Shown in pieces: positions 16,971-52,071 of a stretch of DNA of 64,000 nucleotides. The stretch comes from Piscicola geometra (lineage: Eukaryota; Annelida; Clitellata; Hirudinida; Piscicolidae). A program made the translations under genes and the position numbers. The DNA lies in contig OX030958.1 in assembly GCA_943735955.1 (NCBI GenBank), positions 9,312,126 through 9,376,125 on the forward strand. The letters are read 5' to 3'. Below the pieces are notes generated by a model. It searched no databases. It was not told where the DNA came from and saw only the letters and a program-made list of their open reading frames with translations. The first letter of the stretch is position 1. Each line of letters begins with the position of its first letter.

Positions 16971-16978
16971 TTACTTTC
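16971..16978. repeat. target-site duplication, left (TTACTTTC)
   Basis: The same 8 bases occur at 52064-52071 immediately outside the right end of element B. The homologous unoccupied site beyond lyase copy 2 (around 61846-61853) has them once, followed by GAGCTATGATG. Left and right can be stretched to 10 bp with one mismatch. Confidence 0.75.
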
Positions 16979-16982
16979 GAAT

Positions 16983-17114
16983 TGCAGTCGATTCACCCCT
17001 TAACCGATTCACCCCATAACCGATTCACCCCATAACCGATTCACCCCATAACCGATTCACCCCTTAACCGATTCACCCCATAACCGATTCACCCCTCAAC
17101 CGATTCACCCCTTA
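16983..17114 (+). repeat. left TIR of element A, 8 x 16 bp
   Basis: Tandem units CCGATTCACCCCWTAA, the outermost starting TGCAGTCGATTCACCCC. The array runs into TTAAAATAGTTAAAAA. The right TIR at 20955-21083 is the inverse, with the same unit number and nearly the same order of unit variants. Confidence 0.9.
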
Positions 17115-17124
17115 AAATAGTTAA

Positions 17125-18470
17125 AAACGGACTTTTTTTAAATAAAAATTTTAATATAAAATAAAATTGTAAATATAAAATAAAATTGTAAATATAAAAT
17201 AAAAGTTTAATTATAAAATAAAAGTTTAAATACAAAATACAAGTTTAAATACAAAATACAAGTTTAAACATAAAATAAATTGTAAATATAAAATAAACTT
17301 TTAAATATAAAATTTTAAATATAAAATAAAATTTTAAATATAAAATAAAATTTTAAATATAAAATAAAATTTTAAATATAAAATAAAATTTTAAATATAA
17401 AATAAAATTTTAAATATAAAATAAAATTTTAAATATAAAATAAAATTTTAAATATAAAATAAAATTTTAAATATAAAATAAAATTTTAAATATAAAATAA
17501 AATTTTAAATATAAAATAAAATTTTAAATATAAAATAAAATTTTAAATATAAAATAAAATTTTAAATATAAAATAAAATTTTAAATATAAAATAAAATTT
17601 TAAATATAAAATAAAATTTTAAATATAAAATAAAATTTTAAATATAAAATAAAATTTTAAATATAAAATAAAATTTTAAATATAAAATAAAATTTTAAAT
17701 ATAAAATAAAATTTTAAATATAAAATAAAATTTTAAATATAAAATAAAATTTTAAATATAAAATAAAATTTTAAATATAAAATAAAATTTTAAATATAAA
17801 ATAAAATTTTAAATATAAAATAAAATTTTAAATATAAAATAAAATTTTAAATATAAAATAAAATTTTAAATATAAAATAAAATTTTAAATATAAAATAAA
17901 ATTTTAAATATAAAATAAAATTTTAAATATAAAATAAAATTTTAAATATAAAATAAAATTTTAAATATAAAATAAAATTTTATGTATAAAATAAAATTTT
18001 AAATATAAAATAAAATTTTAAATATAAAATAAAATTTTAAATATAAAATAAAATTATAAATATAAAATAAAATTTTAAATATAAAATAAAATTTTAAATA
18101 TAAAATAAAATTTTAAATATAAAATAAAATTTTAAATATAAAATAAAATTTTAAATATAAAATAAAATTTTAAATATAAAATAAAATTTTAAATATAAAA
18201 TAAAATTTTAAATATAAAATAAAATTTTAAATAAAAAATAAAATTTTAAATATAAAATAAAATTTTAAATATAAAATAAAATTTTAAATATAAAATAAAA
18301 TTTTAAATATAAAATAAAATTTTTAATAAAAAATAAAATTTAAATATAAAATAAAATTTTGAATATAAAATAAAATTTTAAATATAAAAAAAAATTTTAA
18401 ATATAAAATAAAATTTTAAATATAAAATAAAATTTTAAATATAAAATAAAATTTTAAATATAAAATAATT
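17125..18470. repeat. 19-bp satellite, arm 1 of element A
   Basis: About 70 copies of AAAATTTTAAATATAAAAT, with variant units at the outer edge (AAAATTGTAAATATAAAAT) and scattered single-base changes. Each unit contains TATAAAATAAA when read across the junction. That motif is also present on the opposite strand of arm 2. Confidence 0.93.
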
Positions 18471-19216
18471 TATTAAATTCAAAATACTTTATCAAAACAA
18501 AATATTGAATAAAAAATAAATTATTCAACACAAAACAAATTACTAAATACAAGGCACTCTTTTCAACCAATTCATTTTAGGGTTGTATTTTATGACAGCC
18601 TTTGGACAAAATGAACCTTAAGAAATGATTCTTTTTAGAGTTAATTGAACTTTTTTAGCAAGTAAAAGCGAAGCATACATTGGTAATTTTTAACATGGGG
18701 CAGATCATGCAGTTGATTAGGAATTGATTAGGAAGTGAGGAAAAAACAGACTATTTTTAAAGGACATATAAAAACGGTGCTTTTTTCTCTTTCCTATCTA
18801 TTTTCTTTGCAATCAGTTGACTTGAATCGTCCATCATGCCCATATCTTACTTCTACTGAATTTATACATTTTTGCACATTTCCCAGTTTTTAGGCAATTC
18901 TTACCCGTATCTCACATCTCATGATAATTGTGAGAGAACTATGTATTAGTTTGGTTCCAACCTTGTCGAAAACCTTGTTTATTTTGTCGAAAAAATAAAA
19001 TTTCGGTTAAAAGTACACTAGAATACTGAAAGTAAACAACGAATACATACATCTGCCATTAATGGAGATTTCGTTAATAGGTTAACCTGGCTTCTATTCT
19101 TTCCCTGAATCATAAATTGAAAATAACTCCAAAATAATTATTTTTTTGACAAAAAACACAAAAACATTTTTTCTCTTAAAAACCAATTCATGATATTAAA
19201 TTGTCATTATTCAATA
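18471..19216 (+). other. conserved unique core of element A
   Basis: About 745 bp of unique sequence nearly identical to 38190-38940 in element B. It has no long open frame. It contains a TATA-like ATATAAAAACGG near 18765-18776. About 65 bp later there is a seven-codon open frame (ATG CCC ATA ... TGA, near 18836) after a pyrimidine-rich stretch. The core could be a promoter for a non-coding transcript; this is inference from composition only. Confidence 0.5.
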
Positions 19217-19570
19217 ACCAGTTATTCAATATAAAATATACTATATAAAACATAAATATAATGGTATGAATATAAATATACTGGTATAAATATAAATATA
19301 CTGGTATAAATATAAATGTACTGGTATAAATATAAATATACTGATATTAAAAATATAAATATACTAGTATAAATATAAATATACTGGTATAAATATAAAT
19401 ATACTGGTATAAATATAAACATACTATAAAAAATATAAATATGCTATATAAAATATAAATATACTATTAATAATATAAATATGCTATATAAAATATAAAT
19501 ATACTATTAATAATATAAATATGTTATATAAAATAAAATATACTATTACTATAGTTATTAAAAATATACT
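19217..19570. repeat. about 20-bp tandem repeat, element A
   Basis: Units of the type AAATATAAATATACTGGTAT, grading into units ending ACTATTAATAATAT. Equivalent to 38950-39449 in element B, where the second type has expanded. Confidence 0.85.
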
Positions 19571-19572
19571 AT

Positions 19573-19609
19573 TGAGGGGTGGATCGGTCAAGGGATGAAT
19601 CGACTGCAA
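19573..19609. repeat. internal diverged right terminus
   Basis: GAGGGGTGGATCGGTC then AAGGGATGAATCGACTGCA. It matches the right-end consensus (GGGGTGAATCGGTTAAGG) with substitutions. Together with the left TIR it delimits a 2.6-kb sub-element, so the arm-2 part looks like a later addition. The same feature occurs at 39450-39485 in element B. Confidence 0.7.
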
Positions 19610-19710
19610 CTCCATAATTATAACTGCACTTTTTCAGAAATAACAAGTTTTGGATCTTTTTACAATGCGCGTACAAACAAACCGTTGATTTCCGTGATGG
19701 CCAATCAAAG

Positions 19711-20660
19711 CTATTTATTTTATAATTATCTATTTATTTTATAATTATCTATTTATTTTATAATTATCTATTTATTTTATAATTATCTATTTATTTTATA
19801 ATTATCTATTTATTTTATAATTATCTATTTATTTTATAATTATCTATTTATTTTATAATTATCTATTTATTTTATAATTATCTATTTATTTTATAATTAT
19901 CTATTTATTTTATAATCATCTATTTATTTTATAATTATCTATTTATTTTATAATTATCTATTTATTTTATAATTATCTATTTATTTTATAATTATCTATT
20001 TATTTTATAATTATCTATTTATTTTATAATTATCTATTTATTTTATAATTATCTATTTATTTTATAATTATCTATTTATTTTATAATTATCTATTTATTT
20101 TATAATTATCTATTTATTTTATAATTATCTATTTATTTTATAATTATCTATTTATTTTATAATTATCTATTTATTTTATAATTATCTATTTATTTTATAA
20201 TTATCTATTTATTTTATAATTATCTATTTATTTTATAATTATCTATTTATTTTATAATTATCTATTTATTTTATAATTATCTATTTATTTTATAATTATC
20301 TATTTATTTTATAATTATCTATTTATTTTATAATTATCTATTTATTTTATAATTATCTATTTATTTTATAATTATCTATTTATTTTATAATTATCTATTT
20401 ATTTTATAATTATCTATTTATTTTATAATTATCTATTTATTTTATAATTATCTATTTATTTTATAATTATCTATTTATTTTATAATTATCTATTTATTTT
20501 ATAATTATCTATTTATTTTATAATTATCTATTTATTTTATAATTATCTATTTATTTTATAATTATCTATTTATTTTATAATTATCTATTTATTTTATAAT
20601 TATCTATTTATTTTATAATTATCTATTAATTTTATAATTATCTATTTATTTTATAATTTT
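19711..20660. repeat. 19-bp satellite, arm 2 of element A
   Basis: About 50 nearly perfect copies of ATTTATTTTATAATTATCT. Read on the minus strand, the unit shares TTATAAAATAAA and the 19-bp period with arm 1. The two arms are therefore related in inverted orientation. Confidence 0.95.
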
Positions 20661-20954
20661 TTAAATATTTTATCATTTTTTAAATATTTTATAATTTTTA
20701 ATATTTTATAGTTTTTTAAATTTCTTATAGTTTTTATATATATTTTTTAGATATATTTTATAATTTAAAAAAATAATTTGCCATTTATTTTATCTTTTTA
20801 AATAAATGTATTTATTCGTTTTATAATTTTTTCATAGTTTTTTATTTATTTGAACAAATTATAGTTTTTATTTTCATTATTTAAAAAATAATAATGTATT
20901 ATTTTATTTTAGCAAAATACCTATAAAAAATAATGTCAATTTTTAACTATTTTA

Positions 20955-21083
20955 AGGGGTGAATCGGTTGAGGGTGAATCGGTTATGGGGTGAATCGGTT
21001 AAGGGGTGAATCGGTTATGGGGTGAATCGGTTATGGGGTGAATCGGTTATGGGGTGAATCGGGTATGGGGTGAATCGACTGCA
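20955..21083 (-). repeat. right TIR of element A, 8 x 16 bp
   Basis: Inverse of the left TIR: units GGTTATGGGGTGAATC, ending GGGGTGAATCGACTGCA. The adjoining bases TCCC are shared with the right end of element B. Confidence 0.9.
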
Positions 21084-21697
21084 TCCCCTCTAAAAATATA
21101 ACCACAGCTCATGTGTTTGAAGAAAAACTTAACTTTCTTCTACAGTTTTTAGCGATTTGAGAAAAAATAATTAGGTTTTGAATTGCGTACTTATAGATTC
21201 AATTAATGTTATTCTTATATTCTTACAGTCATTTACTTTATATATTTTTATCTCCAATTATTTTATGAACGACTAAAGAAAACTTCCCACAAATCCTTTT
21301 ATTATTTACAATCTATTTTCAGTTCTTTTTATACAAAAATAAATTTGCACAGATTTGCACCCATATGCCATGCCCCGATAAAATAGTGAAATTTCTTTCA
21401 AATAAATAATAATTAAATGTCCGGACAATCTGGTTTTTTAGTCATCATATTATCAAAGTATATATAAATGTCAAGTCACTAAAAATTAAAACATTAATAT
21501 AACATAAATATTTAGGATAACTAACTAGATAGACCAGGAATAAAGCTGTATTCATTTTGTTGATGAAACTCTAATTATAAATAAACAATTTATTGTGTTA
21601 GCCACAGACAGATAAATTTACACTCTGGGTCAAAATAAACCATGCCGCTCTATCTTTATATATAACAATGGCGATTTTCAATTTTTGCACTATTTAA
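21084..21697. other. non-coding DNA inside the composite
   Basis: AT-rich sequence with no gene or recognised repeat. The bases beside element A's inner end (CTCTAAAA) do not match those beside element B's inner end. Confidence 0.5.
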
Positions 21698-23451: not shown

Positions 23452-23559
23452 CATTTGCATTTTTTTATCCTTTATATATTCTTTTTAAAAAAATAAAATG
23501 TGGATTATTTTTAGAAATAAATTCTGATAAAATTTTTATTACATTTGTGAGAGAAAATT

Positions 23560-23663
23560 CTTAAAATACTATTTTATACAAATGTTAAATATTCTAAAAA
23601 CATTGCGTTAAAATACTATTTTATACAAATGTTAAATATTCTACAAACATTGCGTTAAAATAC
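23560..23663. repeat. 51-bp direct repeat, two copies
   Basis: TTAAAATACTATTTTATACA and the following AAATGTTAAATATTCTA occur twice in tandem, with the start of a third copy. Confidence 0.8.
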
Positions 23664-23984
23664 GATTAACGCATGATTAAAATTTTAATCGAACGATTAA
23701 CGTCGATTAAAATTTTTTAAATCATGGAACAGCTCTAATTTTTATAAACATAATCCATTAACTTAAATCCATAAATATAAAAAGAAGAGTAGGTGGAGAA
23801 ATATTTGAGAAAGCAAAGAATAATTTTGCTTCAGGCAGCTATTACTATAACTACGCCTACCCAAAATAAATAATTGAATGAAAAATCTGTTTCATGTTAT
23901 AGTTGACGAATATGCTTGTATTGAGATAGAGAAAATATTGTATTTGAAAAATTGAGGGGGGTCCATGTCAAGTGTATTCTGAAT

Positions 23985-24440
23985 TGCAATGCGGCTTCAG
24001 ATCAGGAGGATCCACATTCGACATGATCTTCTCCATGATCAGTTCCAGGAAAAGTGCAGAGAGTAGCGGATTTCGTTGTATATCACCTTTATTGACCTAA
24101 CCAAGGCATTCGACCTTGTAAGCAAGAGCGGTCTGTTTCGGCTACTCCAGCAAATCGACTGTCCACCTCAGCGTCTCAACATTACAACTTCCTATCACGA
24201 CGGGACACCTCAGAACCCTTCACAATCATGAGTGGGGTCAAACAGGGTTGTGTGCTAGCGCCTACATTATTCGGCATCTTCTTCTCGATGCTGCTGAACT
24301 TTGCATTTAAGGACTCTGCCGAAGGTGTCCACCTACGCCTAAAAGCAAAGACAAAAATTCGCATTGACATGCTGTTTGCTGATGCAGCCCTGGTGACACA
24401 CACGGAAGAACACCTTTGCTTAGGCTTGCAAGAAATTTGT
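23985..24440 (+). pseudogene. LINE reverse transcriptase fragment, 5' part
   Basis: Frameshifted non-LTR retrotransposon. Recognisable blocks are CGFRSGGSTFDMIFSM, the TKAFD-like block, MSGVKQGCVLAPTLFGIFFS, and MLFADAALVTHTEEHL (the FADD box, with one Asp replaced by Ala). The same open frame resumes at 25350 after a transposon insertion. Dead copy. Confidence 0.8.
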
Positions 24441-24448
24441 TCTGACCA

Positions 24449-25341: not shown

Positions 25342-25349
25342 TCTGACCA

Positions 25350-25578
25350 TAAGTATTAAAAAAACCAACATCATGGGTCAAGACATTCCTGTTCCATCCT
25401 CAATCACAATCGACAATCAGGTGCTGGAGGCCACTGACAAGTTCACATACTTGGGCTCCGTCATTACTAGCAGCCTATCCCTCGACATCGAGATTGACAT
25501 GAAGCTCGCCAGAGCAGCCAGCGTCACGGCTAGATGGAGCAAAAGTGTATGGTCTAACAACCAAGTATTTAAGTAAAC
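25350..25578 (+). pseudogene. LINE reverse transcriptase fragment, 3' part
   Basis: Continuation of the LINE broken at 24440: frame with KFTYLGSVITSSLSLDIEID and ARAASVTARWSKSVWSN, typical of the thumb region after the FADD box. Closing the gap at TCTGACCA restores the order. Confidence 0.78.
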
Positions 25579-25914
25579 AAGTAATAGTTTTGTTTTAGAC
25601 ACTAAAACTATACATACTCACAATCTCTTACTCTTTGAGCTGTGCCCTAATCTATGTTAATTTTCGATTGACGCGTTAATCAATTAACGCTGTTAAACAT
25701 ATTAAAGCATTTAATAAGATGTAACGCATTTAAAAGTTTAAAAATTGTAACGAAATGTTCAAATGTATTAAAATTAAACTGTTTTTGCTGTGTTGGGTGC
25801 CTTGTCAGCAATTGAACACAAACTATGTCAATAAACGAATGGGAAAACTTGCATTTTTTGATAAAACTTCTTATTCCTTGTTGTTTTCAAGTCTTTTTTT
25901 ATTATTCTTAAAAT

Positions 25915-26498: not shown

Positions 26499-26506
26499 CT
26501 TCAATC

Positions 26507-29172: not shown

Positions 29173-29184
29173 CTTTAATCGAAC

Positions 29185-30850: not shown

Positions 30851-30858
30851 GTTGCTGT

Positions 30859-31165: not shown

Positions 31166-31173
31166 GTTGCTGT

Positions 31174-31689: not shown

Positions 31690-34241
31690 TCATCCACTCT
31701 CACAGATACCTCCAAATTGGTAAGTGGAAACATCCTTGTCAAACGTAGGCTTTCCATCTCCTTTCATAACCCCGCTCAAAATGTGGCATTCCCCATTTCT
31801 TATATTCCACTTGTAGAATATACACGCCGACTCATGACAACTCATTCTACAATGCAAGTGAGAAACAACAAGTATGCTCTTTAGATTATCGAAGGTTTTG
31901 TCTTCACCGTCACGTCTAGTCCAGCATGAGGCCTCTGAAAATATAATTGTATATATTATTTAACAAAAACCTCTTTTTCAGTAGTTAATTAAATCTTTGA
32001 AGCATTTTTCTTGCACATACTTTTGCAAAGAGGCTTCAATTCAAAGACATATTTTGCGGTGGTTCCCTTAAAAAGAGTGGTTCCTAATGAGAGGGATTGA
32101 GTCTTTTGGATGAAGCAAGTTTGACCAAAATATGCAATGTGGAAGCAATATTCGGTCTCCAAACATTTTAACCTGCAATCATTCTCACTGGAAGAATCAA
32201 CTTTTTCCAAGTTAACTCTTTTTTTGGCGGACTTTGACCAACAAGCGTCTCCTGCGAAAAATAAAAACTTTGAAAATTTAATTTCTACTCCATTTTTTAT
32301 CACCCACCTCGACACTCGTCTTTCAGAAAATAGGTTTTTGCTTCTTTTTTAACAGTTAGTTTTTTCATATCGAACTTGTCACTGTCAAAAGGTAAAGAAC
32401 AATGCCCATCGAGGGAAGAGACGGAACAGAAGCCTATCAACTGGTCATAAGCAAAACATTGATCCATACTAGAGGTCGGACATGGACGATTTTTCATTCC
32501 CGGTCCCGTCCCGTTCCCGAAATTTGTTTTCCCGTCCCGTCCCGTTCCCGATGGGACATCAGAATTTTGATTCCCGTCCCGTCCCGTTCCCGAAATTTTT
32601 TTTCCCGTCCCGACCCGTTCCCGAAAGCTTTTTGTTTTTTTATTCATTTTCGCTGCCGTTTTCACTGGTCCCAAACTTGCTAGTTCTAACATTTCTTAAA
32701 ATTTATTATTTGAAAGTCAGAGAATATTTCTTTTAATAAAATGAAAAAAACACGATTTAAATTTCAAATATTTATTGAAATGAAAGTATTGAAGTTAGTC
32801 ATTGTTTTTGAGTAATTCAATCAAGTCTTTATTGCTTTTCACACGGGTTAAACCGTTAAGAGTTTCAGTTTTCAAATGAAATGATTTTGGGTCTGAAGTT
32901 AAACGACCACATATTGAAAAATTCCGTTTACAGCGAATATAACTTGCAGATATACTAAACAAAATTTTGGCTACTTCTTGTAGTATTTTAAAATTGCTCA
33001 TTTTATTCCAATAAAATAAAACATCTTTATAATTTTCAATTTTTTTGGGACGTAATTGTGAATATTTGTACAATTCATCCTCTTCTGAATTTTTTTCTTC
33101 GTTCATTATTATTAATTCTTCAATAATGTTAGAAATATGTTTTTTGATAACGTTCTTATTCTCCACAACTGCAAATATAAAATCATTCGTATAATTTGAT
33201 AGTATAATAATTTTATTATAATTTTTACGTTATAAAAACAAACATAATAGGTCTAAATAACCATCATTTGTTTTTTTTCTCAACGGCACGGCTGTATAAA
33301 ATAGAATTAAATTTTCTCTAATGAAAGTCTTGGTATTTATTTCTTTTCTATCCCAAACTTTTTTCCTATTATTCTTTCATACTGGGGATGCAACAGACAT
33401 GCTGTCATATGAATAAGATCAATGGCATTTTTTCTTTTGTCGAAATGATCAACTGAGCAATCAACTGGAAATTAATCATTCAAATTTAAAGTATTAATTT
33501 ATAAAATTAAAATAATATAACTGACCAGTTTGATTTAATCTGAAAAGTTTTCATCATCACCCATTTGTTCTAATCTCCCTAATCTTGGACTCATCATAAC
33601 AACTTCAAATGTAGTGTTGGAGATTTCGACATTGGCAATGGTGGCTTCGTTATACATTTCTATTGCATTTAATACTTATTTTAAGTACGGAGAATCGATG
33701 AAATAAAGATTTCCATACTTGGAAGTTTGCTGAAAAATCATTTTTAAAGAATCGAATCCCAATAACTTTTATTCCCGTTTTTCCCGTTCCCGATTTAAAA
33801 GTTGATTCCCGTTCCCGTCTTTTCCCGTTCCCGATTTGAATTTTGACTCCCGTTCCCGTTCCCGTCCCGAAAACCTATTCCCGGTTCCCGACTTTTCCCG
33901 TCCCGAAATTAATTTTCATTCCCGTTCCCGCGGGAGTCCCGCGGGTACCCGGTCAGATCGGGTACCCGGTCCGACCTCTAATCCATACATCTCATTCCCT
34001 GGATGATATTGGTCGAATAGAGGCCGGTGTATGCATTGTCATACGTCTCCCAACAGGAATCTTCCGCTGAAAAATATCATTGAGTTTGAAAACCATTCTT
34101 CAATGTTTAAATCATGTTTTAGCAGATAACGTTGAATAGAATCGAATGCTTTCTGCATTAACAATATGAAAGGATTTTCAAACCTGCGTCGCTACCCACG
34201 ACCAGAGCAAGAAGAAGGAAGATGGAGCCGCTGGAAAACAT
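31690..34241 (-). CDS. secreted three-module PAN/apple-like protein, broken by a transposon
   Basis: Four exons on the minus strand: 34241-34184 (start ATG), 34066-32308 (interrupted by a 1511-bp hAT element), 32251-32021 and 31934-31690 (TGA). Ignoring the element and one copy of its 8-bp duplication, the coding length is exactly 774 nt, 257 aa plus stop. All introns are phase 1. Exon 1 is a signal peptide (FSSGSIFLLLALVVGSDA after Met). Each later exon is one module beginning with Cys-Trp and holding six cysteines, spaced about C-x(21-24)-C-x3-C-x(4-9)-C-x(8-11)-C-x(~30)-C, similar to PAN/apple folds used in protein or sugar binding. The partner is unknown. With the element in place the frame hits TAG immediately after Met-Asp in module 1, so this allele should be null unless the element is spliced out. 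Confidence 0.82.
32470..33980 (-). mobile_element. hAT element inserted in the PAN gene
   Basis: Perfect 12-bp inverted ends TAGAGGTCGGAC and a perfect 8-bp duplication ATCCATAC (32462-32469, 33981-33988). Subterminal regions are rich in CCCGTTCCCG-type repeats on both sides. It is an internally deleted derivative: it encodes only a hAT dimerisation-domain relic on the minus strand (32795-33166). That relic has VAKILFSISASYIRCKRNFS, where Ala-Ser-x-x-x-Glu-Arg is expected. Confidence 0.93.
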
Positions 34242-35006: not shown

Positions 35007-35009
35007 TTG

Positions 35010-36180: not shown

Positions 36181-37537
36181 AGCTTGGGAAAACACACAAA
36201 AAATTTAAAAGCTGGTTTATAGAAAAAGCGAAAAAGACTTGAACTTTTATTCCTGTTGAAATCAAAAGATGATCCTTTCACTGAAAATGAAGAAGTTGAA
36301 ATTTTTTTATTTATTAATGAAATAATTAATTAATAAAAATAAAAATATATAAAAAAACAAAAAAGTTTACAAAAAATTGTTTTTCTAGTTAATAAACGGT
36401 TTAACATATCCCATTTTGTTTGTTTTTTTTCAATCGTGGGTGGGAGAGGTTATTTTTGACATAAAAAATTAGTTTTTGTGTTCAAATTTCTTGTAGTGTT
36501 AGTATTAATTATGTCCTAAGAGGACGTTTTGAAATTTTGAAATCGATGATTATGCCCCCCCCAGGGGCGCAACCAGCCAAAAATGCTGGGGGGGGCTCAA
36601 CTTTAGTATAAAAAAATATTATTTACCGCAACTGTTGTGTTTTGCATCATCCATTTTAAAATTTTTTTGCTCTTTTAATACCGATTTTTTTTCAAATATT
36701 TTGTACAATAAATTTTAAATTAATAAGTTAAATTTCAAAATTTTTCATTTTATTATTCATAATCTTTTATTTCCTGTTCACATTTAAAATTTTTCAAAAC
36801 AATTTTTCCTCGCTTAGATAATTTTTCAATTTTCTCATTCGATTTTAGTATTTTTTTTACAAATTTAGTCCTAATTTCAGGGTGAGAAGATAGTTAATAC
36901 ATGAATTAATTTTTTATATATTCAAAATAACTTTTAAAAGGTTTCCAATGCTTTTGAAAATTAATGGTGCGTTTTCGCAACTTTGACGTAATATGATTTC
37001 ATATGATTTTTATTAAGCCTAGTCATTCATTACAATAGTTATTATAAAAATAATAAAATTATTAATTTGATGTTAATGTATTATGACATTTATAAAATTA
37101 AAATTAAAAGTTGAATTTGTAGATGAATGTTGATTTTTATATTTCGAAAACAATTCCAAACCGCAAATGCTTCACACTTGAAGCTTTTATTGAAGAAAAT
37201 ATAATTTTTAACCTCTCATAAGTTGATTATAAAATTAAAATAAAGATAACATTCGTCGTCATGTCGTCTTTGAAAAAGCACGACAGTTTATGAGTATGAT
37301 GTTGTAATTCACATTAAATAATTTTCTTTGTTGTAATTAAAAGAATAATAATTATTATTATAACTAATAAAATAGTTAGAAGTCATAATTTTATCGAACT
37401 ATTTGCAATTGAAATTTATTTCTGTTTTAATAAATGTGGTTTGAATACATTTATTTATGATTTCTTACTGCACATTTTGCCACATAAAAACTTATGAAAT
37501 ATTTTTTTCCAATTTTGCTTGAGTTGTTATTATGAAT
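36181..37537. other. AT-rich DNA with a lone hAT-like end
   Basis: No gene seen. CAGGGGCGCAACCAG at 36562-36576 resembles a hAT terminus, but no partner end was found. The remainder up to element B is unique AT-rich sequence. Confidence 0.4.
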
Positions 37538-37629
37538 TGCAGTCGATTCACCCCTTAACCGATTCACCCCATAACCGATTCACCCCTCAACCGATTCACC
37601 CCTTAAAATAGTTAAAAACGGACTTTTTT

Positions 37630-38190
37630 AAAATAAAAATTTTAATATAAAATAAAATTGTAAATTTAAACTAAAATTGTAAATATAAAATAAAAATGTA
37701 AATATAAAATAAAATTGTAAATATAAAATAAAATTGTAAATATAAAATAAAATTGTAAATATAAAATAAAATTGTAAATATAAAATAAAATTGTAAATAT
37801 GAAATAAAATTGTGAATATAAAATAAAATTGTAATTATAAAATAAAATTTTAAATATAAAATAAAATTTTAAATATAAAATAAACTTTTAAATATAAAAT
37901 AAAATTGTAAATATAAAATAAAATTGTAAATATAAAATAAAATTGTAAAAATAAAATAAAATTGTGAATATAAAATAAAATTGTAATTATAAAATAAATT
38001 TTTAAATATAAAATAAAATTTTAAATATAAAAAAAAAGTTTAAAAAAAATTTAAATATAAAATAAAAGTTTAAATATTAAAAAAAAATTTAATATAAAAT
38101 AAACTTTTAATATAAAATAAAATTTTAAATATGAAATAAAATTTTAAATACAAAATAAAATTTTAAATATAAAATAAAATTTTTAATATA
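37630..38190. repeat. 19-bp satellite, arm 1 of element B
   Basis: About 30 units, mostly AAAATTGTAAATATAAAAT in the outer half and AAAATTTTAAATATAAAAT in the inner half. It is shorter and less uniform than arm 1 of element A, where the second type was amplified. Confidence 0.9.
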
Positions 38191-38940
38191 AAATAATTTA
38201 TTAAATTCAAAATACTTTATCAAAACAAGATATTAAATAAAAAATAAATTATTCAACACAAAATAAATTATAATACAAGGCACTCTTTTCACCAATTCAT
38301 TTTAGGGTTGTATTTTATGACAGCCTTTGGACAAAATGAACCTTAAGGAATGATTCTTTTTAGAGTTAATTGAACTTTTTTAGCAAGTAAAAGCGAAGCA
38401 TACATTGGTAAGTTTTAACATGGAGCAGATCATGCAGTTGATTAGGAATTGATTAGGAAGTGAGGAAAAAACAGACTATTTTTAAAGGACATATAAAAAC
38501 GGTGCTTTTTTCTCTTTCCTATCTATTTTCTTTGCAATCAGTTGACTTGAATCGTCCATCATGCCCATATCTTACTTCTACTGAATTTATACATTTTTGC
38601 ACATTTCCCAGTTTTTAGGCAATTCTTACCCGTATCTCACATCTCATGATAATTGTGAGAGAACTATGTATTAGTTTGGTTCCAACCTTGTCGAAAACCT
38701 TGTTTAATTTGTCGAAAAAATAAAATTTCGGTTAAAAGTACACTAGCATACTGAAAGTAAACAACGAATATATACATCTGGCATCAATGGAGACTTCGTT
38801 AATAGGTTAACCTGGCTTCTATTCTTTTCCTGAACAATAAATTAATAATAACTCCAAAATAATTATTTATTTGACAAAAAACACAAAAATATTTTTTCTC
38901 TTAAAAACCAATTCATGATATTAAATTGTCATTATTCAAT
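38190..38940 (+). other. conserved unique core of element B
   Basis: Nearly identical to 18471-19216 in element A, including the TATA-like ATATAAAAACGG (near 38492) and the short open frame (near 38560). There is no other coding signal. Confidence 0.5.
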
Positions 38941-38949
38941 AACCAGTTA

Positions 38950-39485
38950 TTCAATAAAAAAAATATTATATAAAATATACTATATGAAATATAAGTATAC
39001 TGGTATGAGTATAAATATACTGGTATAAATATAAATATACTGGTATAAATATAAATATACTAGTATAAATATAAATATACTGGTATAAATATAAACATAC
39101 TATAAAAAATATAATTATGCTATATAAAATATAAATATACTATTAATAATATAAATATGTTATATAAAAAATAAATATACTATTAATAATATAAATATAC
39201 TATTAATAATATAAATATACTATTAATAATATAAATGTACTATTAATAATATAAATATACTATTAATAATATAAATATACTATTAATAATATAAATAATT
39301 TATTAATAATATAAATATACTATTAATAATATAAATATACTATTAATAATATAAATATATTATTAATAATATAAATATACTATTAATAATACAAATATGT
39401 TATATAAAATATAAATATACTATTACTATAATTATTACAAATATACTATTGAGGGGTGGATCGGTCAAGGGATGAATCGACTGCA
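38950..39485. repeat. about 20-bp repeats and internal terminus of element B
   Basis: First AAATATAAATATACTGGTAT-type units, then an expansion of ATAAATATACTATTAATAAT units. It is closed by the internal diverged terminus (39450-39485, ending GAATCGACTGCA). Confidence 0.85.
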
Positions 39486-39588
39486 ACTCCATTAATATAA
39501 CTGCACTTTTTCAGAAATAACAAGTTTTGGATCTTTTTACAATGCCCGTACAAACAAATCGTTGATTTCCGCGATGGCCAATTAAAGC

Positions 39589-42500
39589 TATTTATTTTAT
39601 AATTATCTATTTATTTTATAATTATCTATTTATTTTATAATTATCTATTTATTTTATAATTATCTATTTATTTTATAATTATCTATTTATTTTATAATTA
39701 TCTATTTATTTTATAATTATCTATTTATTTTATAATTATCTATTTATTTTATAATTATCTATTTATTTTATAATTATCTATTTATTTTATAATTATCTAT
39801 TTATTTTATAATTATCTATTTATTTTATAATTATCTATTTATTTTATAATTATCTATTTATTTTATAATTATCTATTTATTTTATAATTATCTATTTATT
39901 TTATAATTATCTATTTATTTTATAATTATCTATTTATTTTATAATTATCTATTTATTTTATAATTATCTATTTATTTTATAATTATCTATTTATTTTATA
40001 ATTATCTATTTATTTTATAATTATCTATTTATTTTATAATTATCTATTTATTTTATGATTATCTATTTATTTTATAATTATCTATTTATTTTACAATTAT
40101 CCATTTATTTTATAATTATCTATTTATTTTATAATTATCCATTTATTTTATAATTATTTATTTATTTTATAATTATCCATTTATTTTATAATTATCTATT
40201 TATTTTATAATTATCTATTTATTTTATAATTATCTATTTATTTTATAATTATCTATTTATTTTATAATTATCTATTTATTTTATGATTATCTATTTATTT
40301 TATAATTATCTATTTATTTTACAATTATCCATTTATTTTATAATTATCTATTTATTTTATAATTATCTATTTATTTTATAATTATCTATTTATTTTATAA
40401 TTATCTATTTATTTTATAATTATCTATTTATTTTATAATTATCTATTTATTTTATAATTATCTATTTATTTTATAATTATCTATTTATTTTATAATTATC
40501 TATTTATTTTATAATTATCTATTTATTTTATAATTATCTATTTATTTTATAATTTTTTAATATTTTATAATTATCTATTTATTTTATAATTTTTTAATAT
40601 TTTATAATTATCTATTTGTTTTATAATTATCTATTTATTTTATAATTTTTTAATATTTTATAATTATCTATTTGTTTTATAATTATCTATTTATTTTATA
40701 ATTATCTATTTATTTTATAATTTTTTAATATTTTATAATTATCTATTTATTTTATAATTTTTTAATATTTTATAATTATCTATTTGTTTTATAATTATCT
40801 ATTTATTTTATAACTATCTATTTATTTTATAATTATCTATTTATTTTATAATTATCTATTTATTTTATAATTATCTATTTATTTTATAATTATCTATTTA
40901 TTTTATAATTATCTATTTATTTTATAATTATCTATTTATTTTATAATTATCTATTTATTTTATAATTATCTATTTATTTTATAATTATCTATTTATTTTA
41001 TAATTATCTATTTATTTTATAATTATCTATTTATTTTATAATTATTTATTTATTTTATAATTATCTATTTATTTTATAATTATCTATTTATTTTATAATT
41101 ATCTATTTATTTTATGATTATCTATTTATTTTATAATTATCTATTTATTTTACAATTATCCATTTATTTTATAATTATCTATTTATTTTATAATTATCCA
41201 TTTATTTTATAATTATCTATTTATTTTATAATTATCCATTTATTTTATAATTATCTATTTATTTTATAATTATCTATTTATTTTATAATTATCTATTTAT
41301 TTTATAATTATCTATTTATTTTATAATTATCTATTTATTTTATAATTATCTATTTATTTTATGATTATCTATTTATTTTATAATTATCTATTTGTTTTAC
41401 AATTATCCATTTATTTTATAATTATCTATTTATTTTATAATTATCCATTTATTTTATAATTATCTATTTATTTTATAATTATCCATTTATTTTATAATTA
41501 TCTATTTATTTTATAATTATCTATTTATTTTATAATTATCTATTTATTTTATAATTATCTATTTATTTTATAATTATCTATTTATTTTATAATTATCCAG
41601 TTATTTAATAATTATCCATTTATTTTATAATTATCTATTTATTTTATAACTATCTATTTATTTTATAATTATCTATTTATTTTATAATTTTTTAATATTT
41701 TATAATTATCTATTTGTTTTATAATTATCTATTTATTTTATAATTATCTATTTATTTTATAATTTTTTAATATTTCATAATTATCTATTTATTTTATAAT
41801 TATCTATTTATTTTATAATTATCTATTTATTTTATAATTATCTATTTATTTTATAATTATCTATTTATTTTATAATTATCTATTTATTTTATAATTATCT
41901 ATTTATTTTATAATTATCTATTTATTTTATAATTATCTATTTATTTTATAATTATCTATTTATTTTATAATTATCTATTTATTTTATAATTATCTATTTA
42001 TTTTATAATTATCTATTTATTTTATAATTATCTATTTATTTTATAATTATCTATTTATTTTATAATTATCTATTTATTTTATAATTATCTATTTATTTTA
42101 TAATTATCTATTTATTTTATAATTATCTATTTATTTTATAAATATCTATTTATTTTATAATTATCTATTTATTTTATAATTATCTATTTATTTTATAATT
42201 ATCTATTTATTTTATAATTATCTATTTATTTTATAATTATCTATTTATTTTATAATTATCTATTTATTTTATAATTATCTATTTATTTTATAATTATCTA
42301 TTTATTTTATAATTATCTATTTATTTTATAATTATCTATTTATTTTATGATTATCTATTTATTTTATAATTATCTATTTATTTTACAATTATCCATTTAT
42401 TTTATAATTATCTATTTATTTTATAATTATCTATTTATTTTATAATTATCTATTTATTTTATAATTATCTATTTATTTTATAATTATCTATTTATTTTAT

Positions 42501-45500
42501 AATTATCTATTTATTTTATAATTATCTATTTATTTTATAATTATCTATTTATTTTATAATTATCTATTTATTTTATAATTATCTATTTATTTTATAATTA
42601 TCTATTTATTTTATAATTATCTATTTATTTTATAATTATCTATTTATTTTATAATTATCTATTTATTTTATAATTATCTATTTATTTTATAATTATCTAT
42701 TTATTTTATAATTATCTATTTATTTTATAATTATCTATTTATTTTATAATTATCTATTTATTTTATAATTATCTATTTATTTTATAATTATCTATTTATT
42801 TTATAATTATCTATTTATTTTATAATTATCTATTTATTTTATAATTATCTATTTATTTTATAATTATCTATTTATTTTATAATTATCTATTTATTTTATA
42901 ATTATCTATTTATTTTATAATTATCTATTTATTTTATAATTATCTATTTATTTTATAATTATCTATTTATTTTATAATTATCTATTTATTTTATAATTAT
43001 CTATTTATTTTATAATTATCTATTTATTTTATAATTATCTATTTATTTTATAATTATCTATTTATTTTATAATTATCTATTTCTTTTATAATTATCTATT
43101 TATTTTATAATTATCTATTTATTTTATAATTATCTATTTATTTTATAATTATCTATTTATTTTATAATTATCTATTTATTTTATAATTATCTATTTATTT
43201 TATAATTATCTATTTATTTTATAATTATCTATTTATTTTATAATTATCTATTTATTTTATAATTATCTATTTATTTTATAATTATTTATTTATTTTATAA
43301 TTATCTATTTATTTTATAATTATCTATTTATTTTATAATTATCTATTTATTTTATGATTATCTATTTATTTTATAATTATCTATTTATTCTACAATTATC
43401 CATTTATTTTATAATTATCTATTTATTTTATAATTATCCATTTATTTTATAATTATCTATTTATTTTATAATTATCCATTTATTTTATAATTATCTATTT
43501 ATTTTATAATTATCTATTTATTTTATAATTATCTATTTATTTTATAATTATCTATTTATTTTATAATTATCTATTTATTTTATAATTATCTATTTATTTT
43601 ATAATTATCTATTTATTTTATGATTATCTATTTATTTTATAATTATCTATTTGTTTTACAATTATCCATTTATTTTATAATTATCTATTTATTTTATAAT
43701 TATCCATTTATTTTATAATTATCTATTTATTTTATAATTATCCATTTATTTTATAATTATCTATTTATTTTATAATTATCTATTTATTTTATAATTATCT
43801 ATTTATTTTATAATTATCTATTTATTTTATAATTATCTATTTATTTTATAATTATCCAGTTATTTAATAATTATCCATTTATTTTATAATTATCTATTTA
43901 TTTTATAACTATCTATTTATTTTATAATTATCTATTTATTTTATAATTTTTTAATATTTTATAATTATCTATTTGTTTTATAATTATCTATTTATTTTAT
44001 AATTATCTATTTATTTTATAATTTTTTAATATTTCATAATTATCTATTTATTTTATAATTATCTATTTATTTTATAATTATCTATTTATTTTATAATTAT
44101 CTATTTATTTTATAATTATCTATTTATTTTATAATTATCTATTTATTTTATAATTATCTATTTATTTTATAATTATCTATTTATTTTATAATTATCTATT
44201 TATTTTATAATTATCTATTTATTTTATAATTATCTATTTATTTTATAATTATCTATTTATTTTATAATTATCTATTTATTTTATAATTATCTATTTATTT
44301 TATAATTATCTATTTATTTTATAATTATCTATTTATTTTATAATTATCTATTTATTTTATAATTATCTATTTATTTTATAATTATCTATTTATTTTATAA
44401 TTATCTATTTATTTTATAAATATCTATTTATTTTATAATTATCTATTTATTTTATAATTATCTATTTATTTTATAATTATCTATTTATTTTATAATTATC
44501 TATTTATTTTATAATTATCTATTTATTTTATAATTTTCTATTTATTTTATAATTATCTATTTATTTTATAATTATCTATTTATTTTATAATTATCTATTT
44601 ATTTTATGATTATCTATTTATTTTATAATTATCTATTTATTTTACAATTATCCATTTATTTTATAATTATCTATTTATTTTATAATTATCTATTTATTTT
44701 ATAATTATCTATTTATTTTATAATTATCTATTTATTTTATAATTATCTATTTATTTTATAATTATCTATTTATTTTATAATTATCTATTTATTTTATAAT
44801 TATCTATTTATTTTATAATTATCTATTTATTTTATAATTATCTATTTATTTTATAATTATCTATTTATTTTATAATTATCTATTTATTTTATAATTATCT
44901 ATTTATTTTATAATTATCTATTTATTTTATAATTATCTATTTATTTTATAATTATCTATTTATTTTATAATTATCTATTTATTTTATAATTATCTATTTA
45001 TTTTATAATTATCTATTTATTTTATAATTATCTATTTATTTTATAATTATCTATTTATTTTATAATTATCTATTTATTTTATAATTATCTATTTATTTTA
45101 TAATTATCTATTTATTTTATAATTATCTATTTATTTTATAATTATCTATTTATTTTATAATTATCTATTTATTTTATAATTATCTATTTATTTTATAATT
45201 ATCTATTTATTTTATAATTATCTATTTATTTTATAATTATCTATTTATTTTATAATTATCTATTTATTTTATAATTATCTATTTATTTTATAATTATCTA
45301 TTTATTTTATAATTATCTATTTATTTTATAATTATCTATTTATTTTATAATTATCTATTTATTTTATAATTATCTATTTATTTTATAATTATCTATTTAT
45401 TTTATAATTATCTATTTATTTTATAATTATCTATTTATTTTATAATTATCTATTTATTTTATAATTATCTATTTCTTTTATAATTATCTATTTATTTTAT

Positions 45501-48500
45501 AATTATCTATTTATTTTATAATTATCTATTTATTTTATAATTATCTATTTATTTTATAATTATCTATTTATTTTATAATTATCTATTTATTTTATAATTA
45601 TCTATTTATTTTATAATTATCTATTTATTTTATAATTATCTATTTATTTTATAATTATCTATTTATTTTATAATTATCTATTTATTTTATAATTATCTAT
45701 TTATTTTATAATTATCTATTTATTTTATAATTATCTATTTATTTTATAATTATCTATTTATTTTATAATTATCTATTTATTTTATAATTATCTATTTATT
45801 TTATAATTATCTATTTATTTTATAATTATCTATTTATTTTATAATTATCTATTTATTTTATAATTATCTATTTATTTTATAATTATCAATTTATTTTATA
45901 ATTATCAATTTATTTTATAATTATCTATTTATTTTATAATTATCTATTTATTTTATAATTATCTATTTATTTTATAATTATCTATTTATTTTATAATTAT
46001 CTATTTATTTTATAATTATCTATTTATTTTATAATTATCTATTTATTTTATAATTATCTATTTATTTTATAATTATCTATTTATTTTATAATTATCTATT
46101 TATTTTATAATTATCTATTTATTTTATAATTATCTATTTATTTTATAATTATCTATTTATTTTATAATTATCTATTTATTTTATAATTATCTATTTATTT
46201 TATAATTATCTATTTATTTTATAATTATCTATTTATTTTATGATTATCTATTTATTTTACAATTATCCATTTATTTTATAATTATCTATTTATTTTATAA
46301 TTATCCATTTATTTTATAATTATTTATTTATTTTATAATTATCCATTTATTTTATAATTATCTATTTATTTTATAATTATCTATTTATTTTATAATTATC
46401 TATTTATTTTATAATTATCTATTTATTTTATAATTATCTATTTATTTTATGATTATCTATTTATTTTATAATTATCTATTTATTTTACAATTATCCATTT
46501 ATTTTATAATTATCTATTTATTTTATAATTATCTATTTATTTTATAATTATCTATTTATTTTATAATTATCTATTTATTTTATAATTATCTATTTATTTT
46601 ATAATTATCTATTTATTTTATAATTATCTATTTATTTTATAATTATCTATTTATTTTATAATTATCTATTTATTTTATAATTTTTTAATATTTTATAATT
46701 ATCTATTTATTTTATAATTTTTTAATATTTTATAATTATCTATTTGTTTTATAATTATCTATTTATTTTATAATTTTTTAATATTTTATAATTATCTATT
46801 TGTTTTATAATTATCTATTTGTTTTATAATTATCTATTTATTTTATAATTATCTATTTATTTTATAATTTTTTAATATTTTATAATTATCTATTTATTTT
46901 ATAATTTTTTAATATTTTATAATTATCTATTTGTTTTATAATTATCTATTTATTTTATAACTATCTATTTATTTTATAATTATCTATTTATTTTATAATT
47001 ATCTATTTATTTTATAATTATCTATTTATTTTATAATTATCTATTTATTTTATAATTATCTATTTATTTTATAATTATCTATTTATTTTATAATTATCTA
47101 TTTATTTTATAATTATCTATTTATTTTATAATTATCTATTTATTTTATAATTATCTATTTATTTTATAATTATCTATTTATTTTATGATTATCTATTTAT
47201 TTTATAATTATCTATTTATTTTACAATTATCCATTTATTTTATAATTATCTATTTATTTTATAATTATCCATTTATTTTATAATTATCTATTTATTTTAT
47301 AATTATCCATTTATTTTATAATTATCTATTTATTTTATAATTATCTATTTATTTTATAATTATCTATTTATTTTATAATTATCTATTTATTTTATAATTA
47401 TCTATTTATTTTATAATTATCTATTTATTTTATGATTATCTATTTATTTTATAATTATCTATTTGTTTTACAATTATCCATTTATTTTATAATTATCTAT
47501 TTATTTTATAATTATCCATTTATTTTATAATTATCTATTTATTTTATAATTATCCATTTATTTTATAATTATCTATTTATTTTATAATTATCTATTTATT
47601 TTATAATTATCTATTTATTTTATAATTATCTATTTATTTTATAATTATCTATTTATTTTATAATTATCCAGTTATTTAATAATTATCCATTTATTTTATA
47701 ATTATCTATTTATTTTATAACTATCTATTTATTTTATAATTATCTATTTATTTTATAATTTTTTAATATTTTATAATTATCTATTTGTTTTATAATTATC
47801 TATTTATTTTATAATTATCTATTTATTTTATAATTTTTTAATATTTCATAATTATCTATTTATTTTATAATTATCTATTTATTTTATAATTATCTATTTA
47901 TTTTATAATTATCTATTTATTTTATAATTATCTATTTATTTTATAATTATCTATTTATTTTATAATTATCTATTTATTTTATAATTATCTATTTATTTTA
48001 TAATTATCTATTTATTTTATAATTATCTATTTATTTTATAATTATCTATTTATTTTATAATTATCTATTTATTTTATAATTATCTATTTATTTTATAATT
48101 ATCTATTTATTTTATAATTATCTATTTATTTTATAATTATCTATTTATTTTATAATTATCTATTTATTTTATAATTATCTATTTATTTTATGATTATCTA
48201 TTTATTTTATAATTATCTATTTATTTTACAATTATCCATTTATTTTATAATTATCTATTTATTTTATAATTATCCATTTATTTTATAATTATTTATTTAT
48301 TTTATAATTATCCATTTATTTTATAATTATCTATTTATTTTATAATTATCTATTTATTTTATAATTATCTATTTATTTTATAATTATCTATTTATTTTAT
48401 AATTATCTATTTATTTTATAATTATCTATTTATTTTATGATTATCTATTTATTTTATAATTATCTATTTATTTTACAATTATCCATTTATTTTATAATTA

Positions 48501-51500
48501 TCTATTTATTTTATAATTATCTATTTATTTTATAATTATCTATTTATTTTATAATTATCTATTTATTTTATAATTATCTATTTATTTTATAATTATCTAT
48601 TTATTTTATAATTATCTATTTATTTTATAATTATCTATTTATTTTATAATTATCTATTTATTTTATAATTTTTTAATATTTTATAATTATCTATTTATTT
48701 TATAATTTTTTAATATTTTATAATTATCTATTTGTTTTATAATTATCTATTTATTTTATAATTTTTTAATATTTTATAATTATCTATTTGTTTTATAATT
48801 ATCTATTTATTTTATAATTATCTATTTATTTTATAATTTTTTAATATTTTATAATTATCTATTTATTTTATAATTTTTTAATATTTTATAATTATCTATT
48901 TGTTTTATAATTATCTATTTATTTTATAACTATCTATTTATTTTATAATTATCTATTTATTTTATAATTATCTATTTATTTTATAATTATCTATTTATTT
49001 TATAATTATCTATTTATTTTATAATTATCTATTTATTTTATAATTATCTATTTATTTTATAATTATCTATTTATTTTATAATTATCTATTTATTTTATAA
49101 TTATCTATTTATTTTATAATTATCTATTTATTTTATAATTATCTATTTATTTTATAATTATCTATTTATTTTATAATTATCTATTTATTTTATAATTATC
49201 TATTTATTTTATAATTATCTATTTATTTTATAATTATCTATTTATTTTATAATTATCTATTTATTTTATAATTATCTATTTATTTTATAATTATCTATTT
49301 ATTTTATAATTATCTATTTATTTTATAATTATCTTTTTATTTTATAATTATCTATTTATTTTATGATTATCTATTTATTTTATAATTATCTATTTATTTT
49401 ACAATTATCCATTTATTTTATAATTATCTATTTATTTTATAATTATCCATTTATTTTATAATTATTTATTTATTTTATAATTATCCATTTATTTTATAAT
49501 TATCTATTTATTTTATAATTATCTATTTATTTTATAATTATCTATTTATTTTATAATTATCTATTTATTTTATAATTATCTATTTATTTTATAATTATCT
49601 ATTTATTTTATGATTATCTATTTGTTTTATAATTATCTATTTATTTTACAATTATCCATTTATTTTATAATTATCTATTTATTTTATAATTATCTATTTA
49701 TTTTATAATTATCTATTTATTTTATAATTATCTATTTATTTTATAATTATCTATTTATTTTATAATTATCTATTTATTTTATAATTATCTATTTATTTTA
49801 TAATTATCAATTTATTTTATAATTTTTTAATATTTTATAATTATCTATTTATTTTATAATTTTTTAATATTTTATAATTATCTATTTGTTTTATAATTAT
49901 CTATTTATTTTATAATTTTTTAATATTTTATAATTATCTATTTGTTTTATAATTATCTATTTATTTTATAATTATCTATTTATTTTATAATTTTTTAATA
50001 TTTTATAATTATCTATTTATTTTATAATTTTTTAATATTTTATAATTATCTATTTGTTTTATAATTATCTATTTATTTTATAACTATCTATTTATTTTAT
50101 AATTATCTATTTATTTTATAATTATCTTTTTATTTTATAATTATCTATTTATTTTATAATTATCTATTTATTTTATAATTATCTATTTATTTTATAATTA
50201 TCTATTTATTTTATAATTATCTATTTATTTTATAATTATCTATTTATTTTATAATTATCTATTTATTTTATAATTATCTATTTATTTTATAATTATCTAT
50301 TTATTTTATAATTATCTATTTATTTTATAATTATCTATTTATTTTATAATTATCTATTTATTTTATAACTATCTATTTATTTTATAATTATCTATTTATT
50401 TTATAATTATCTATTTATTTTATGATTATCTATTTATTTTATAATTATCTATTTGTTTTACAATTATCCATTTATTTTATAATTATCTATTTATTTTATA
50501 ATTATCCATTTATTTTATAATTATCTATTTATTTTATAATTATCCATTTATTTAATAATTATCCATTTATTTTATAATTATCTATTTATTTTATAATTAT
50601 CTATTTATTTTATAATTATCTATTTATTTTATAATTATCTATTTATTTTATAATTATCCAGTTATTTAATAATTATCCATTTATTTTATAATTATCTATT
50701 TATTTTATAACTATCTATTTATTTTATAATTATCTATTTATTTTATAATTTTTTAATATTTTATAATTATCTATTTGTTTTATAATTATCTATTTATTTT
50801 ATAATTATCTATTTATTTTATAATTTTTTAATATTTCATAATTATCTATTTATTTTATAATTATCTATTCATTTTATAATTATCTATTTATTTTATAATT
50901 ATCTATTTATTTTATAATTATCTATTTATTTTATAATTATCTATTTATTTTATAATTATCTATTTATTTTATAATTATCTATTTATTTTATAATTATCTA
51001 TTTATTTTATAATTATCTATTTATTTTATAATTATCTATTTATTTTATAATTATCTATTTATTTTATAATTATCTATTTATTTTATGATTATCTATTTAT
51101 TTTATAATTATCTATTTATTTTACAATTATCCATTTATTTTATAATTATCTATTTATTTTATAATTATCCATTTATTTTATAATTATCTATTTCTTTTAT
51201 AATTATCCATTTATTTTATAATTATCTATTTATTTTATAATTATCTATTTATTTTATAATTATCTATTTATTTTATAATTATCTATTTATTTTATAATTA
51301 TCTATTTATTTTATAATTATCTATTTATTTTATGATTATCTATTTATTTTATAATTATCTATTTATTTTACAATTATCCATTTATTTTATAATTATCTAT
51401 TTATTTTATAATTATCCATTTATTTTATAATTATCTATTTATTTTATAATTATCCATTTATTTTATAATTATCTATTTATTTTATAATTATCTATTTATT

Positions 51501-51665
51501 TTATAATTATCTATTTATTTTATAATTATCTATTTATTTTATAATTATCTATTTATTTTATAATTATCCAGTTATTTAATAATTATCCATTTATTTTATA
51601 ATTATCTATTTATTTTATAACTATCTATTTATTTTATAATTATCTATTTATTTTATAATTTTTTA
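39589..51665. repeat. 12-kb 19-bp satellite, arm 2 of element B, with higher-order structure
   Basis: About 635 copies of ATTTATTTTATAATTATCT in uniform orientation. Variant units (TATCC, TTTTTTAATATT, TTTGTTTT, TTCATAATT) recur in the same order in blocks. One marker, CCAGTTATTTAATAATTATC, is found at 41597, 43856, 47668, 50658 and 51568, each followed by the same series of variants. This shows amplification of multi-kilobase blocks rather than single units. Confidence 0.95.
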
Positions 51666-51958
51666 ATATTTTATAATTTTTTAAATATTTTATAATTTTT
51701 TAAATATTTTATAATTTTTTTAATATGTTATAGTTTTTTTATATATTTTTTAAGATATATTTTATAAAAAAAAAAATAATTTGCCATTTATTTTATCTTT
51801 TTAAATAAATGTATTTATTCATTTTATAATTTTGTCATAGTTTTTTATTTATTTGAACAAATAATAGTTTTTTATTTTTTTCAATATTTAAAAAATAATA
51901 ATTTATTATTTTTTTTTAGCAAAATACCTATAAAAAATAAATTCCGTTTTTAACTATT

Positions 51959-52059
51959 TTAAGGGGTGAATCGGTTGAGGGGTGAATCGGTTATGGGGTG
52001 AATCGGTTAAGAGGTGAATCGGTTATGGGGTGAATCGGTTAAGAGGTGAATCGACTGCA
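51959..52059 (-). repeat. right TIR of element B, 6 x 16 bp
   Basis: Units GGTTATGGGGTGAATC and variants with AAGAGG, ending GGTGAATCGACTGCA. Followed by TCCC (shared with element A) and then TTACTTTC. Confidence 0.9.
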
Positions 52060-52063
52060 TCCC

Positions 52064-52071
52064 TTACTTTC
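52064..52071. repeat. target-site duplication, right (TTACTTTC)
   Basis: Matches 16971-16978. The following TAGCTATGATGATGAATAAG continues the 3' flank of lyase copy 1, as shown by copy 2 at 61855 onward. Confidence 0.75.

What the first reader, a model, noticed from the sequence alone, without database searches (positions are those of the whole stretch)
16971..52071. A 35-kb satellite-bounded block carrying a host gene appears to have inserted as one unit
The left end of element A and the right end of element B are flanked by the same 8 bp (TTACTTTC). The paralogous site beyond the second lyase gene (61846-61853) is unoccupied with one copy of TTACTTTC, followed by sequence that in copy 1 resumes only at 52072. 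The inner ends of A and B lack matching flanks. This is the pattern expected of a composite transposon: two non-autonomous elements plus 16.5 kb between them, including a PAN-domain gene, moved together. I know of no described composite element with satellite arms like this. Alternatives are later growth of a single insertion by recombination, or a misjoin inside the satellites.
Basis: partly seen in the sequence, partly recalled or inferred. Interest (0 to 1): 0.9.

Follow-up and report, generated by a model that had tools for sequence, protein, structure and literature searches.

The report
Gene-carrying composite foldback transposon insertion
A 35-kb stretch of a eukaryotic genome, made of two satellite-filled mobile elements with a predicted PAN-domain gene between them, sits between two copies of the same 8 bases beside a lyase gene and most likely jumped there as a single unit, probably from a group of related sequences on another contig.

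Summary
Confirmed: TTACTTTC flanks element A's left end and element B's right end, and the sister lyase copy has one TTACTTTC with colinear sequence on both sides. A and B belong to a foldback-like family; 41 of 52 adjacent end pairs carry an 8- or 9-bp target duplication. Their inner flanks are former separate insertions: A's interrupts a repeat (TE-Q) at CTCTAAAA, B's another (TE-R) at GTTATTAT; uninterrupted copies exist, and the missing halves do not lie beside A or B. Much of the cargo has a colinear paralog on C5. No left end carrying CTCTAAAA or the TE-Q left half, and no right end carrying GTTATTAT or the TE-R right half, was found, as a cut-and-paste departure of A-cargo-B predicts; recombination or a misjoin should leave such ends. 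Rival: a single insertion enlarged by ectopic recombination, which this genome also shows. Composite transposition is favoured, not proven. Ising's foldback-bounded TE and maize macrotransposons are precedents: a new variant of a known kind.

The parts
16971..16978 (+). left copy of the 8-bp target duplication TTACTTTC
   Evidence: colinear with 61846-61853
16979..21087 (+). element A, foldback-like, 4109 bp; left end GAATTGCAGTCG, right end CGACTGCATCCC; 112-nt terminal inverted arms 98% complementary
17140..18486 (.). 19-bp AT satellite, left arm of A
19592..19613 (+). right-end-like sequence buried inside A, in the same sense as A's own right end; also in B at 39469-39490
19711..20696 (.). 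19-bp AT satellite, right arm of A
21088..21690 (.). part of repeat TE-Q; begins at A's inner flank CTCTAAAA
   Evidence: 40 of 234 candidates scored; 6 of 6 fetched copies run uninterrupted across the site, 4 of 6 with exact CTCTAAAA
23460..36561 (.). cargo with a colinear paralog at C5:8697269-8707919, matched in pieces of 86-96% identity; 30102-33985 not compared at that locus
31693..32348 (-). two ORFs with weak PAN_1 matches (E 0.00075 and 0.0011, below Pfam's cut-off)
32470..33980 (.). hAT insertion in the cargo (target duplication ATCCATAC); absent from the C5:8808680-8812950 paralog by alignment and from C5:8697269-8707919 by spacing
36562..37533 (.). left part of repeat TE-R; ends at B's inner flank GTTATTAT
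   Evidence: uninterrupted copies at C5:8804241-8805784 (exact GTTATTAT) and in L051 (diverged there)
37534..52063 (+). element B, same family, 14530 bp
39588..51716 (.). 12-kb 19-bp AT satellite array in B
52064..52071 (+). right copy of the target duplication TTACTTTC
61846..61853 (+). unoccupied paralogous target site, one TTACTTTC
10419..16978 (+). aromatic amino acid lyase copy 1 and 3' flank (PF00221); resumes at 52072
54060..62233 (+). lyase copy 2 (PF00221), carrying the empty site

Best explanation
A 35,085-bp block (element A, a 16.4-kb cargo with a predicted PAN-domain gene, and element B) lies between two copies of TTACTTTC beside a lyase gene copy, and it most likely arrived in one cut-and-paste event in which a transposase, presumably supplied in trans, would have paired A's left end with B's right end. 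Shown: the family's left and right ends and 8-bp (sometimes 9-bp) duplications, the empty sister site, the non-matching inner flanks, that these inner flanks interrupt two repeats (TE-Q and TE-R) whose other halves are missing beside A and B, and that much of the cargo has a colinear paralog on C5. Inferred: at a donor locus, likely a relative of the C5 sequence, A had inserted into TE-Q and B into TE-R on either side of the PAN gene in the same orientation. The outer ends then acted as one large transposon (a macrotransposon). The hAT insertion in the cargo and some growth of B's satellite may be later. The superfamily of the transposase is unknown.
For: Outer 8-mers identical and empty paralogous site colinear. 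41 of 52 adjacent end pairs carry a target duplication (34 at 8/8, 4 at 7/8, 3 at 9/9); an exact match between random flanks has probability 5.5e-5. A and B lie in the same orientation, so A's left end and B's right end form a left-right pair. Inner flanks are former single insertions in TE-Q and TE-R. C5 paralog of the cargo. No donor ends: with up to 3 mismatches in 24 bases, 7 places resemble a left end with CTCTAAAA (best 1 mismatch, C9:5664418, which has its own matching duplication) and 12 a right end with GTTATTAT (best 2 mismatches); none is exact. By 40-bp flank, none of 82 left ends lies in TE-Q (best score 13 against 36-38 between TE-Q copies) and none of 100 right ends in TE-R (best 12 against 35). 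A is coherent: its core and its right linker both fall in one subfamily (AU p 0.020 and 0.003 against the other; the SH test does not reject for the core, p 0.08).
Against: The donor site or an excision scar was not found; the scar was not searched for. Ends with diverged motifs are outside one search's 182 (B's own right end is one such). Ectopic recombination between members of this family appears to happen: two C2 elements have swapped duplications, and 10 of 52 pairs (A and these two among them) have unmatched flanks. B's right linker groups with another subfamily than its core in the trees, though neither alternative placement is rejected (AU p 0.37 and 0.35), so a crossover inside B is not excluded. 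No other clear composite was seen among the 182 tabulated ends: further matching pairs on one contig (C9, C10, C11, C14) look like segmental copies with identical or nearly identical wider flanks. No reads were available.
Confidence: 0.6

Rival explanations
1. Two steps: a single element inserted at TTACTTTC, and later ectopic homologous recombination (integration of an excised circle, or double exchange or conversion with a cargo locus flanked by two elements) put the cargo into it.
For: Elements on C2 carry exchanged duplications (C2:11839227-11851441 and 11890150-11902907), the pattern that Galileo shows at a Drosophila inversion (PMC2775673, passages). B may be mosaic.
Against: The donor should keep a left end with CTCTAAAA in TE-Q and a right end with GTTATTAT in TE-R; neither was found. 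A shows no sign of a crossover between core and right end; its part left of the core could not be tested. It needs more steps.
Confidence: 0.25
2. Assembly artefact: misjoins inside the satellites of A and B placed the cargo here from elsewhere.
For: B holds a 12-kb near-homogeneous array; no reads were available; the C2 swap could itself be a misjoin.
Against: Two misjoins are needed, one inside a 4.1-kb element. The true cargo locus would leave orphan left and right ends in TE-Q and TE-R, and none was found.
Confidence: 0.1
3. A and B are two independent insertions, and the shared 8-mer is chance.
For: Each has both ends of the family.
Against: Neither has its own duplication; the empty site resumes exactly beyond B; chance of the 8-mer about 4e-5.
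Confidence: 0.01

Closest known systems
Ising's TE of Drosophila melanogaster, DNA mobilised between foldback transposons (PMC6431247, passages read)
   Same: A large host segment lies between two foldback-type elements and is thought to move as a unit.
   Different: Described as a mobile unit of hundreds of kilobases; here one 35-kb insertion is inferred from sequence, and the arms are 19-bp AT satellites, one of 12 kb.
Ac macrotransposons of maize (PMC9910405, passages read; Huang and Dooner 2008 seen only as a reference, not held)
   Same: Ends of separate copies act together on a larger unit; 8-bp duplication; sizes of 10.3 and 28 kb.
   Different: Ac is a hAT element (recalled) and its excision and reinsertion were observed; here the transposase is unknown and the event is inferred.
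Tetris, foldback element of Drosophila virilis (PMC4079207, passages read)
   Same: Non-autonomous foldback with tandem arrays inside its terminal repeats that grow into satellites; duplications of 8-10 bp.
   Different: About 220-bp repeats; no composite movement appears in the passages read.
Galileo, foldback-like element of the P superfamily (PMC2775673, passages read)
   Same: Internally repetitive arms; exchanged duplications at an inversion, matched here by the C2 pair.
   Different: 7-bp duplications; an inversion rather than a mobilised segment.

Membership tests
macrotransposon or composite transposon | same target duplication outside the two outer ends, one copy at the empty site | tested here: met
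macrotransposon or composite transposon | inner ends are complete element ends with unrelated flanks from separate earlier insertions | tested here: met
macrotransposon or composite transposon | outer ends form a compatible left-right pair | tested here: met
   51 of 52 adjacent pairs in the genome join a left with a right end
macrotransposon or composite transposon | excision scar at the donor, or several copies of the whole unit | tested here: inconclusive
   no second copy of the unit among the scored candidates of piecewise searches (40 scored per search) and no donor ends; scar not searched; the 16-kb query was swamped by repeats
macrotransposon or composite transposon | observed movement as a unit | not testable with these tools
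   needs other individuals or an excision assay
[quoted passage not shown]
   16-bp arrays at both ends of A and B; 112-nt arms 98% complementary in A
foldback element | no coding capacity in the element itself | tested here: met
   no ORF of 70 aa or more passing the complexity filter in A or B; long ORFs in other copies look by eye like nested retroelements or repeats
Merlin superfamily | 8- or 9-bp duplications | tested here: met
   criterion from PMC8101967 (passages)
Merlin superfamily | terminal 5'-GG-3' at both ends | tested here: not met
   right ends start GGGA but left ends start GAAT; not filed as Merlin
Merlin superfamily | mobilised by a DDE_Tnp_IS1595 transposase | tested here: inconclusive
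   81 PF12762 matches in the genome; stretches of 1.5-1.8 kb around 4 of them hold none of the end motifs, but may not reach those copies' ends

The most novel reading that the evidence does not exclude
Satellite-armed foldback elements are a recurrent gene-moving vehicle in this genome: two neighbours can become one large transposon that carries the DNA between them to another chromosome. The lineage of A and B may itself have arisen that way, since it keeps an old right end inside the element, followed by about 100 bp of other sequence and a second right arm.
Probability: 0.2. Interest if true: 0.75.

Novelty: new variant of a known kind. Interest (0 to 1): 0.57.

Why it matters
The precedents that I found are from Drosophila and maize. 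A natural insertion with base-exact junctions, an empty sister site and a candidate source region would show that foldback-type elements can move a gene between chromosomes, and that large satellite arrays can travel with transposons. It also warns that satellite-armed elements may create both real rearrangements and misjoins.

Tried and rejected
I first read the C5 data as a 110-kb inversion with a break at 29848/29849 (notebook). That was an artefact of my query ending at 29848; one search shows that the C5 match continues, so the idea was dropped. The 16-kb query was swamped by repeats and missed the best C5 paralog, so it is not used as evidence of absence. Merlin as the source of transposase was considered and left open. 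A chimera test on A and B was informative for A only. B's satellite variants show no evident switch point that would mark a crossover.
Full report
What is there. Element A (16979-21087) and element B (37534-52063) lie in the same orientation. Both start GAATTGCAGTCGATTCACCCC and end CGACTGCATCCC, with 16-bp arrays in inverted orientation at the two ends and 19-bp AT satellites inside. In A the arms are 98% complementary over 112 nt. B holds a 12-kb array dominated by one 19-bp unit.

The junctions. TTACTTTC stands directly left of A and directly right of B. Lyase copy 2 has a single TTACTTTC at 61846, and the alignment of copy 1 (flanks joined) with copy 2 is colinear on both sides. A genome search with the copy 2 site gave copy 2 itself and copy 1 as its only long matches; the other rows span less than 90 bases each (40 of 876 candidates scored).

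The family. The 17-base end motif occurs 194 times in the genome (99 plus 95), and 0 times read backwards. 82 have the left-end prefix and 101 the right-end prefix; 11 have other prefixes and were not studied. I tabulated 182 of the 183 (82 left, 100 right; one right end was not listed by the tool). B's right end carries a substitution and is outside this table. 104 ends form 52 adjacent facing pairs, and 78 ends stayed unpaired and were left out of the pair count. Of the 52 pairs, 34 have an identical 8-bp flank, 4 match at 7 of 8, 3 have a 9-bp duplication, 10 do not match (A among them) and 1 joins two left ends. The 41 matched elements range from 585 to 14,339 bp.

Chance and control. Of 7554 left-right comparisons across contigs, 0 share an exact 8-mer and 14 differ by one base; 0.42 exact matches were expected from base composition. 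On the same contig, exact sharing outside one element occurs in apparent segmental copies with identical or nearly identical wider flanks (C10, C11, C14; C9 differs by one base) and in one C2 pair whose duplications are swapped. The swap is the mark of an ectopic exchange as described for Galileo (PMC2775673, passages), or of a misassembly.

The inner flanks. The cargo starts, at A's right end, inside a repeat (TE-Q). Six of six fetched copies of TE-Q run uninterrupted across the site, and four of the six read CTCTAAAA exactly. The cargo ends, at B's left end, inside another repeat (TE-R) at GTTATTAT. The copy at C5:8804241-8805784 reads GTTATTAT and runs on; the copy in L051 also runs on, with a diverged site. 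TE-R's right half has no match in the window, and TE-Q's left half matches only two other places inside the cargo, not the sequence beside A. I conclude that A and B were once separate insertions at another locus.

Origin of the cargo. C5:8697269-8707919 matches window 23460-36561 in colinear pieces of 86-96% identity. The stretch 30102-33985 was not compared there, but its spacing is 1.5 kb shorter on C5, as if the hAT insertion at 32470-33980 (own duplication ATCCATAC) were absent; it is absent by alignment from a second paralog, C5:8808680-8812950 (window 29849-36185, 83-95%). A third partial copy lies at C5:8885312-8886172. Against a C5-only origin, parts of the cargo also match other contigs at about 77-84% (for example C4:6028379, C10:6074746 and C8:2948045), and several stretches are dispersed repeats. 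Two minus-strand ORFs in the cargo match PAN_1 weakly. Movement from C5 to C4 is inferred; about 7% divergence means that the C5 copy is a relative of the donor, not the donor itself.

Mechanism. A one-step composite jump would remove both outer ends from the donor. Recombination or a misjoin would leave a left end with CTCTAAAA in TE-Q and a right end with GTTATTAT in TE-R. With up to 3 mismatches in 24 bases, 7 and 12 places came up, none with the exact 8-mer; the nearest left candidate (CTCTCAAA on C9) has its own matching pair. Compared by 40-bp flanks, none of 82 left ends lies in TE-Q and none of 100 right ends in TE-R. This favours the composite jump but depends on the donor chromosome being in the assembly and on its ends not having diverged out of the table. 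Subfamily tests place A's core and right linker together (AU p 0.020 and 0.003 against the alternative; SH p 0.08 and 0.02) and leave B undecided (AU 0.35 and 0.37). L048, with intact duplications, shows the same mixed placement as B, so B's placement is no proof of a crossover.

Comparison. Ising's TE (PMC6431247, passages) and Ac macrotransposons, including one of 28 kb (PMC9910405, passages), are the nearest in mode of movement; Tetris (PMC4079207, passages) shows satellite growth inside foldback arms. Merlin (PMC8101967, passages) shares 8-9 bp duplications, but its terminal GG is absent from left ends, so the family is not filed there.

Verdict. It is a new variant of a known kind.

Noticed in passing
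G000:C2:11839227-11851441 and C2:11890150-11902907: Two inverted elements of about 12 kb with reciprocally swapped duplications (ACCCTGGC and CTCTTGAA), as expected of a 39-kb inversion by ectopic recombination, or of a misassembly.
   Followed up: partly
window 19592-19613 and 39469-39490: A right-end-like sequence lies inside A and B, followed by about 100 bp of other sequence; found in 10 of 40 elements at up to 3 mismatches.
   Followed up: partly
G000:C14:4650309-4836185: Four elements of 10.8-11.0 kb with the same flank TTTGACAG, apparently segmental copies of one insertion.
   Followed up: no
G000:C5:8885291-8886172: An element's left end directly abuts another partial copy of the cargo sequence.
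   Followed up: no
L041 (G000:C2:13780203-13783444): Element with intact ends and a 7-of-8 duplication whose interior is a different, GC-richer tandem repeat.
   Followed up: no
G000:C9:5871097-5872971: Three PF12762 transposase matches in tandem, 732 bp apart, near an element left end at 5874345.
   Followed up: no
window 56965-58683: A 1.7-kb stretch of lyase copy 2 with a reverse transcriptase ORF (PF00078) is absent from copy 1.
   Followed up: no
L051 (G000:C8:5363638-5371460): Element with unmatched flanks whose core holds a TE-R copy that itself contains a LINE-like insertion.
   Followed up: partly
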